Source: a virus. From it: 64,000 bases of DNA. Below the pieces are notes generated by a model, which was not told the origin of the DNA, ran no database searches, and saw only the letters and a list, made by a program, of their open reading frames with translations. Below are positions 62,987 to 63,265 of the stretch, piece after piece. The DNA lies in IMG/VR virus record IMGVR_UViG_3300025117_000038, positions 53,396-117,395 of that record. One strand, 5' to 3'. A program made the position numbers and the translations under genes. Positions within the stretch are counted from its first letter, which is position 1. Each line of letters starts with the position of its first letter.

Positions 62987-63062
62987 TTCAAGGCGGGAAA
63001 TGGTGGTTCGAATCCCCTCTCTCCTTAATTGGGGAGATAATATAATGGATAGTATACCCGCC
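62987..63062 (+). tRNA. Circularly permuted tRNA, anticodon UCA
   Basis: The 3' half comes first: anticodon-loop end and stem TTCAAG-GCGGG (62987-62997), T arm with TTCGAAT (63007-63013), acceptor strand TCTCTCC (63018-63024). A TTAATT linker follows, then the 5' half: acceptor GGGGAGA (63031-63037), TA, D arm ATAT-AATGGATA-GTAT, A26 and CCCGC (63057-63061). The acceptor pairs at 7/7 (one G-U); the anticodon stem CCCGC/GCGGG is perfect, and C62/G992 extends it. Joined, the 7-nt loop is CTTCAAG, or CGTCAAG if the GTC after the 5' half is kept; both give anticodon UCA, a UGA reader. The T stem has a bulged U. No CCA is encoded. Confidence 0.75.
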
Positions 63063-63265
63063 GTCTACACTTGAAAGGACGAAACTTAAAAGATGAAATT
63101 ATGGGGATGAAGTAATGGTAACTTATTGGGCTTTCTGGTTTGTTCACTCAAACTGGTACAATCCCAAGTTGTGAGGTTCGATTCCTCACTCCCCATTATT
63201 TCAATGCATCATAGAGTGTACTGATGAGTCCGATGCAAAAGAGAATTGAGTGCATCTGAAAACGG
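63058..63265 (+). ncRNA. Dispersed hammerhead-ribozyme core sequences
   Basis: GTC (63063-63065) ends the permuted tRNA's 5' half and is followed by TACACT (63066-63071), which pairs perfectly with AGTGTA (63215-63220). CTGATGA (63221-63227), the hammerhead core, follows at once, then GTCC and GATGCA. Two candidates complete the core: TGCATC-T-GAAAACGG (63251-63265), whose ACGG pairs with CCGT at the cleavage side in the correct strand order, and GGAC-GAAAC (63077-63085), whose GGAC pairs with GTCC. Cleavage would fall after GTC at 63065. The loop of stem I would contain the tRNA at 63101. Confidence 0.55.
63101..63196 (+). tRNA. tRNA with a 25-nt hairpin insertion in the anticodon loop
   Basis: Acceptor ATGGGGA (63101-63107) pairs fully with TCCCCAT (63190-63196); TG; D arm AAGT-AATGGTA-ACTT; A; anticodon stem TTGGG (63126-63130) with CCCAA (63163-63167); T arm GTGAGG-TTCGATT-CCTCAC. 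The anticodon loop is 32 nt instead of 7. It holds an 8-bp hairpin CTGGTTTG-TTCACT-CAAACTGG. Removing 25 nt leaves CTTCAAT (anticodon UCA) or CTTTAAT (UUA), depending on the break. The acceptor helix extends outward by six more pairs (TGAAAT/ATTTCA) past one mismatch. No CCA encoded. Confidence 0.7.

What the first reader, a model, noticed from the sequence alone, without database searches (positions are those of the whole stretch)
63058..63265. Hammerhead-type ribozyme parts linking the permuted tRNA to a downstream core
GTC ends the permuted 5' half and TACACT after it pairs perfectly with AGTGTA placed directly before CTGATGAGTCC, the hammerhead core. GAAA-containing partners exist on both sides (GGACGAAAC upstream, TGCATCTGAAAACGG downstream). 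The downstream one gives correct strand order and a 4-bp stem III (CCGT/ACGG) but an imperfect stem II and one extra A. Cleavage after GTC would cut exactly at the anticodon loop and leave ends that RtcB-type ligases join.
Basis: partly seen in the sequence, partly recalled or inferred. Interest (0 to 1): 0.85.

Follow-up and report, generated by a model that had tools for sequence, protein, structure and literature searches.

The report
Permuted hammerhead at a permuted tRNA
A phage genome carries all the parts of a rare, rearranged self-cutting RNA (a type-SGC hammerhead), placed so that it would cut in the anticodon loop of a tRNA gene whose two halves are encoded in swapped order, and the same genome encodes RtcB, a ligase able to rejoin such ends.

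Summary
GTC|TACACT, GGACGAAAC and AGTGTA-CTGATGAGTCC are present, and chance does not explain them. The resulting order (Site, GAAA, CUGAnGA) is no circular permutation of a classic hammerhead; it is the non-circular "type-SGC" permutation validated in vitro by Eckert et al. 2023 (PMC10085705). The window also has that type's extra helix (TGCATC/GATGCA around the core) and short stem I-II linker. The long insert is a tRNA-like domain closed by its own helix. Stem III has only 2 bp, the main weakness. The predicted cut (63065|63066) ends the 5' half of a circularly permuted tRNA-Glu(CUC)-like gene; joining it to U62988 gives a 7-nt anticodon loop. The contig encodes RtcB, a second RNA ligase and RlaP. 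Folding predicts that the bridging helix is blocked until about position 63410 is transcribed. No homologous locus was found, so covariation could not be tested, and cleavage is untested. What frees the 5' end of the 3' half is unknown. Verdict: a new variant of a known ribozyme kind, in a setting for which I found no precedent.

The parts
62988..63024 (+). 3' half of a circularly permuted tRNA-Glu(CUC)-like gene (anticodon positions 35 onward, T arm, acceptor 3' strand)
   Evidence: Acceptor 7/7 and anticodon stem 5/5 pairs with the downstream 5' half; null 5 in 13,085 Markov contigs
63025..63030 (+). TTAATT intervening sequence between the tRNA halves
   Evidence: Read directly
63031..63065 (+). 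5' half of the permuted tRNA, ending in GTC = anticodon-loop positions 32-34 and hammerhead cleavage triplet (block S)
   Evidence: U8, A14, GG, U33, D stem and anticodon stem
63066..63071 (+). Stem I, strand after the predicted cut (TACACT)
   Evidence: Perfect pairing with 63215-63220
63072..63076 (+). Linker TGAAA between stem I and stem II
   Evidence: Read directly
63077..63085 (+). Block G: stem II strand GGAC, core GAA, stem III strand AC
   Evidence: GGAC pairs 4/4 with GTCC 63228-63231
63094..63203 (+). tRNA-Arg-like domain (63101-63197) with a hairpin in its anticodon loop and an acceptor helix extended by TGAAAT/ATTTCA; closes the insert between blocks G and C
   Evidence: ARAGORN with introns allowed; fold -38.3 kcal/mol for 63094-63205
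63205..63210 (+). 5' strand of the I/II bridging helix (TGCATC)
   Evidence: 6/6 pairs with 63232-63237
63215..63231 (+). Block C: stem I strand AGTGTA, core CTGATGA, stem II strand GTCC
63232..63237 (+). 3' strand of the I/II bridging helix (GATGCA); can alternatively pair with TGCATC 63251-63256
   Evidence: Pair probabilities against transcript end
63242..63417 (+). Structured domain closed by a perfect 15-bp stem (63242-63256 with 63403-63417); predicted to free the bridging helix when complete
   Evidence: Fold z-score -4.07 for 63200-63430

Best explanation
The locus encodes a type-SGC (non-circularly permuted) hammerhead ribozyme built into a permuted tRNA precursor. The transcript runs: 3' half of tRNA-Glu, UUAAUU, 5' half ending in GUC (anticodon-loop positions 32-34), UACACU (stem I), UGAAA, GGAC-GAAAC (block G), a tRNA-Arg-like domain, then UGCAUC-AUAG-AGUGUA-CUGAUGA-GUCC-GAUGCA. 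Folded with pseudoknots it makes stem I (6 bp), stem II (4 bp), a 2-bp stem III that could stack on the tRNA anticodon stem, and a 6-bp helix bridging stems I and II. It would cut between C63065 and U63066 and leave a 2',3'-cyclic phosphate on C34 of the tRNA 5' half. The phage RtcB would join that end to a 5'-OH at U62988 (position 35), closing a 7-nt anticodon loop (GUC-UCAA, anticodon CUC) in a circular RNA from which RNase P and 3' nucleases remove UUAAUU. The ribozyme may become active only after the downstream domain is made. Shown by sequence or computation: the parts, pairings, order, improbability by chance, permuted tRNA, RtcB, and the predicted switch. Inferred: cleavage, ligation, function. 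Unknown: what makes the 5' end of the 3' half.
For: All core bases of a hammerhead are present (CUGAUGA, GAA, A15.1-U16.1, GUC). Stem I 6/6, stem II 4/4 and bridging helix 6/6 Watson-Crick pairs; 17 of 19,004 Markov contigs match this well. Layout matches type SGC, including the bridging helix and a short I-II linker (PMC10085705). The cut falls in the anticodon loop of a permuted tRNA that is itself improbable by chance. The insert folds as one closed domain. The contig encodes RtcB (PF01139, E 3.6e-72), an RNA ligase and RlaP; RtcB joins hammerhead products efficiently in vitro (PMC7229834).
Against: Stem III is only 2 bp. The insert between blocks G and C is 119 nt, against 0-44 nt in the published consensus. 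No homologous locus was found, so there is no covariation. No cleavage was tested. The bridging helix was recognised as such only after reading the paper, although the unconstrained fold already contained it. No ribozyme or nuclease that frees U62988 was found. The tRNA has a 1-base irregularity in the T stem/acceptor register. In a plain fold the leader pairs with the cleavage-site strand, which would compete with stem I.
Confidence: 0.5

Rival explanations
1. An active type-SGC hammerhead, but not for making a tRNA: the cut only processes the transcript (for example frees the tRNA-Arg-like and downstream RNAs), and the permuted tRNA-like part is a structural element or a decoy for anticodon nucleases.
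For: The 5' end of the 3' half has no identified processing site (one search finds no other core in 62391-64000). The tRNA halves have an irregular T stem/acceptor register. Neighbouring tRNAs also have disrupted anticodon loops.
Against: The cut position leaves exactly a 7-nt loop with U33 when joined at 62988, and RtcB is encoded.
Confidence: 0.25
2. Vestigial or rearranged hammerhead pieces: ordinary hammerheads near phage tRNAs were broken and shuffled by recombination, and the present order is no longer active.
For: Type I hammerheads next to phage tRNAs exist in other contigs. Stem III is weak. No relatives keep this layout.
Against: Three helices are intact with perfect pairing, including the bridging helix that only an SGC layout needs; decay would not be expected to create it.
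Confidence: 0.17
3. A classical type III hammerhead using the downstream TGCATCTGAAAACGG.
For: Strand order S-C-G is the ordinary one, and CCGT/ACGG would give a 4-bp stem III.
Against: Stem II next to the core would be one G-U pair then a mismatch, with GTCC unpaired; one extra A lies between GAA and stem III; TGCATC 63251-63256 is predicted to sit in a 15-bp stem. It does not appear among the top S/G/C combinations.
Confidence: 0.04
4. Chance resemblance.
For: A single example without homologues.
Against: About 9e-4 per 117-kb contig before counting its position at the anticodon loop of a permuted tRNA.
Confidence: 0.04

Closest known systems
Type-SGC hammerhead ribozymes (HRIMA-1 motif and variants; Eckert et al. 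2023, PMC10085705)
   Same: Block order S-G-C, conserved core, short linker between stems I and II, a helix bridging the far sides of stems I and II.
   Different: Here in a tailed-phage DNA contig rather than RNAs associated with hairpin ribozymes in metatranscriptomes; block S is part of a tRNA; a tRNA-like domain sits between blocks G and C; stem III is 2 bp.
Circularly permuted tRNA genes of algae and archaea (review PMC3978253)
   Same: 3' half encoded before 5' half with a short intervening sequence; circular intermediate expected; a junction in the anticodon loop also occurs there.
   Different: Those junctions are thought to be cut by the protein tRNA-splicing endonuclease at a bulge-helix-bulge motif; here the cut would be made by a hammerhead, and no such endonuclease was found in the contig.
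Theta (HDV-like) ribozymes at phage tRNAs (PMC10879173)
   Same: Self-cleaving ribozymes used next to phage tRNA genes; RNA ligases enriched in the same phages.
   Different: They act on 3' trailers of normally ordered tRNAs and are a different ribozyme class.
Retrozyme hammerheads (PMC7229834)
   Same: Hammerhead ends are joined efficiently by RtcB in vitro; natural examples with a stem III of about 2 bp exist.
   Different: Type I ribozymes in animal retrotransposon RNAs; circularisation follows two cuts by tandem ribozymes.

Membership tests
Type-SGC hammerhead ribozyme | Block order site - GAAA - CUGAnGA | tested here: met
   63063, 63081, 63221
Type-SGC hammerhead ribozyme | Conserved core: CUGAnGA, GAAA, A15.1-U16.1 pair, NUH cleavage triplet | tested here: met
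   CUGAUGA, GAAA, A63084-U63064, GUC
Type-SGC hammerhead ribozyme | Stems I and II | tested here: met
   6 and 4 Watson-Crick pairs
Type-SGC hammerhead ribozyme | Stem III | tested here: inconclusive
   Only 2 pairs (A-U, C-G), then U opposite C; may stack on the anticodon stem
Type-SGC hammerhead ribozyme | Short linker joining stem I to stem II (typically 3 nt) | tested here: met
   UGAAA, 5 nt, or 4 if the terminal U-G pair forms
Type-SGC hammerhead ribozyme | Helix bridging the other sides of stems I and II | tested here: met
   TGCATC 63205-63210 with GATGCA 63232-63237, 6/6
Type-SGC hammerhead ribozyme | 0-44 nt between stem III and the bridging helix, or a longer insert that folds so as to allow the structure | tested here: inconclusive
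   119 nt; 63094-63203 folds as one closed domain leaving 8 + 1 unpaired bases. [quoted passage not shown]
Type-SGC hammerhead ribozyme | Covariation among relatives | tested here: inconclusive
   No homologous locus found
Type-SGC hammerhead ribozyme | Self-cleavage at the predicted site | not testable with these tools
   Needs in vitro transcription
Classical type III hammerhead | Stem II directly after CUGAnGA, pairing with the strand directly before GAAA | tested here: not met
   GTCC has no partner before GAAA 63258; one G-U then a mismatch
Circularly permuted tRNA gene | 3' half before 5' half, both pairing as a cloverleaf | tested here: met
   Acceptor 7/7, anticodon stem 5/5, invariant bases; 5 hits in 13,085 Markov contigs; a T-stem mismatch and a register irregularity remain
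Circularly permuted tRNA gene | Bulge-helix-bulge at the junction and a tRNA-splicing endonuclease | tested here: inconclusive
   No endonuclease PF01974 in the contig, which may be incomplete; the leader and trailer can pair but no canonical bulge-helix-bulge was evident by eye; not scored formally
Circularly permuted tRNA gene | Circular intermediate and mature tRNA | not testable with these tools
   Needs RNA from infected cells

The most novel reading that the evidence does not exclude
A phage matures a tRNA by ribozyme cleavage and ligase back-splicing: a pseudoknotted type-SGC hammerhead, released when its downstream RNA domain is completed, cuts in the anticodon loop of a permuted tRNA, and the phage RtcB joins the swapped halves. 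This would be the first ribozyme-processed permuted tRNA and a first biological role for a non-circularly permuted hammerhead.
Probability: 0.3. Interest if true: 0.93.

Novelty: new variant of a known kind. Interest (0 to 1): 0.8.

Why it matters
Type-SGC hammerheads were described without a settled biological role, and permuted tRNAs are reported from algae and archaea (PMC3978253), where a protein endonuclease is thought to cut them. A ribozyme whose cleavage triplet is part of a tRNA anticodon loop, in a phage that carries RtcB, would link the two and offer a minimal tRNA-splicing pathway. It would also suggest that phages build tRNAs with interrupted anticodon loops, perhaps in response to host anticodon nucleases (speculation). 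One in vitro transcript would test the central claim.

Tried and rejected
Classical type III pairing with the downstream GAAA fails at stems II and III. Type II (GSC) readings reach 10 pairs at most; a GCS reading with a site at 63469 reaches 14 pairs, one more than the SGC combination, but I rejected it because its stem I has several U-G pairs and its site lies inside the next tRNA-like gene. Rfam gave only the tRNA at 63431. L198 and L200 carry a 4-bp SGC-like stem I and look like chance. BLAST against phages and plasmids found nothing beyond tRNA T-arm matches and short stretches. A splint role for linker UUGAA with UUCAA of the 3' half is possible (chance 0.008) but has a pairing probability of only 0.03-0.17 in plain folds. 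ARAGORN on rotated sequences is permissive, so it only supports. A second hammerhead that would free the 3' half was sought: no other CTGA.GA occurs in 62391-64000.

Full report
Setting. The window is the right end (53396-117395) of a 117,395-base IMG/VR virus contig. Its terminase (31% identity) and a probable capsid protein (25%) are distantly related to those of Bacillus phages of the Slash group. Near the contig end lies an RNA-gene cluster at 62.7-63.6 kb: a permuted tRNA, a tRNA-Arg-like gene with a hairpin in its anticodon loop, a structured domain, and a tRNA-like gene with a long insert in its anticodon region. A second array with 14 tRNA matches lies at 23.8-30.4 kb on the other strand.

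The observation. GTC|TACACT (63063-63071), GGACGAAAC (63077-63085) and AGTGTA-CTGATGAGTCC (63215-63231) give stem I of 6 Watson-Crick pairs and stem II GTCC/GGAC of 4. In the order site-GAAA-core this is the only core found in the contig. Markov contigs give 0.084 loose hits each, 0.013 with stem I >=6 and stem II >=4, and 0.0009 when the extra helix is also required.

What it is. Blocks S (site), G (GAAA) and C (CUGAnGA) occur as S-G-C. Types I, II and III are circular permutations of one another (S-C-G), so a strand with S-G-C order must form pseudoknots. Eckert et al. 2023 (PMC10085705) found exactly this order and named it type SGC. They showed cleavage at the predicted site in five sequences, and by mutation and compensation in one of them that stems I, II, III and a helix joining the far sides of stems I and II are all needed. 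They report a linker of typically three nucleotides between stems I and II. Here the linker is UGAAA, and the extra helix is TGCATC 63205-63210 with GATGCA 63232-63237, flanking block C. I recognised this helix as a type-SGC feature only after reading the paper, but the unconstrained fold already contained it.

Weak points of the fold. Stem III has two pairs (A-U, C-G). In this precursor the 5' side of stem III continues into the anticodon stem CCGCC/GGCGG, so stem III could stack on it (inference). Natural hammerheads with a 2-bp stem III occur, and a still weaker stem III lowers monomer activity (PMC7229834). Between block G and the bridging helix lie 119 nt instead of 0-44, but 63094-63203 folds as one closed domain, a tRNA-Arg-like cloverleaf whose acceptor helix is extended by TGAAAT/ATTTCA, leaving 8 + 1 unpaired bases. 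In a plain fold of the 5' part alone, the leader pairs with the cleavage-site strand, which would compete with stem I.

The tRNA. 62988-63024 and 63031-63065 are the 3' and 5' halves of a tRNA in swapped order: acceptor GGGGAGA/TCTCTCC 7/7, anticodon stem CCGCC/GGCGG, U8, A14, GG, U33 and a T-loop. Five such arrangements appear in 13,085 Markov contigs. Rotated, ARAGORN reads tRNA-Glu(CUC) when 63065 is joined to 62988, although it is permissive on rotated sequences. The predicted cut after GUC thus falls between anticodon-loop positions 34 and 35. The T stem has a U-C mismatch and the register with the acceptor is off by one base, so the tRNA may be imperfect.

Partner enzymes. The contig encodes RtcB (PF01139, E 3.6e-72), a ligase with PF09414 and the PHA02142 OB-fold, RlaP and a SpoU methylase. 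RtcB uses the 2',3'-cyclic phosphate and 5'-OH ends that hammerheads leave (established knowledge; ligation of hammerhead products in PMC7229834). No tRNA-splicing endonuclease and no PF01743 CCA-adding enzyme were found; the contig may be incomplete.

A predicted switch. Pair probabilities by transcript end: the bridging helix is at 0.96-0.99 up to 63250, at 0.003-0.03 for ends 63258-63400 (GATGCA then pairs with TGCATC 63251-63256), and at 0.93-0.96 from 63410, when the 15-bp stem takes TGCATC away. If real, cleavage waits for the 63242-63417 domain. These folds leave out the pseudoknotted stems.

Relatives. Pattern scans of IMG/VR and genome contigs gave abundant type II hammerheads but no second SGC locus, and close-relative protein scans gave nothing. 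So there is no covariation test.

Context. The scans also gave type I hammerheads that cut exactly at, or one base before, the 5' end of phage tRNAs (Tyr, His, Gly) in five contigs, which supports the idea that phages use hammerheads in tRNA processing. Theta ribozymes at phage tRNA 3' ends are published (PMC10879173).

Verdict. The parts and the SGC layout are well supported by sequence; activity and tRNA maturation are inferences. The main gap is the unknown source of the 5' end of the 3' half. The literature was searched only in the held open-access library, so statements about precedent are limited to it.

Noticed in passing
L013:6483-6673 and L242:8399-8442 (+ strand); L247, L250, L251 (- strand): Type I hammerheads directly before phage tRNA genes, with the predicted cut exactly at the tRNA 5' end (tRNA-Tyr in L013, L242, L251) or one base before it (tRNA-His in L247, where it could supply G-1; tRNA-Gly in L250). 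They look like a substitute for RNase P leader removal.
   Followed up: partly
window 63232-63256 and 63403-63417: GATGCA/TGCATC elements alternate so that the bridging helix and a competing hairpin exclude each other; folding predicts release only when about 63410 is transcribed.
   Followed up: partly
window 63101-63590 and contig 24753-24863 (- strand, in L003): Several tRNAs of this phage have inserts in or near the anticodon loop: a 25-nt hairpin (63101-63197), a two-hairpin insert (63430-63590), and a CTA-anticodon tRNA with a 35-nt insert. They are too short for group I introns.
   Followed up: partly
L003:11825-11926 (+): A 102-base tmRNA-like RNA above Rfam's cut-off (49.8 bits) but far shorter than a tmRNA; ARAGORN finds no tmRNA there.
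   Followed up: no
L002:4871-6034, L003:547-1692, L003:3327-3788, L003:10346-11194: RNA repair and modification genes in the same contig: RtcB, an RNA ligase with an OB-fold, a SpoU methylase and RlaP, the last three flanking or inside the second tRNA array.
   Followed up: partly
window 62700-62885: A probable structured non-coding RNA ending in a terminator-like hairpin, without an Rfam match.
   Followed up: no
L236 about 9000-9300 (- strand) and L232: Two tandem candidates for permuted tRNA genes in another phage (acceptors CGGGAGG/CCTCCCG and TGGGAGG/CCTCCCA); a normal-order reading with one mismatch is also possible.
   Followed up: partly
window 46946-50914 (-): A DNA polymerase III alpha-like ORF appears to contain an intein-like insert, judged by eye from the translation.
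   Followed up: no
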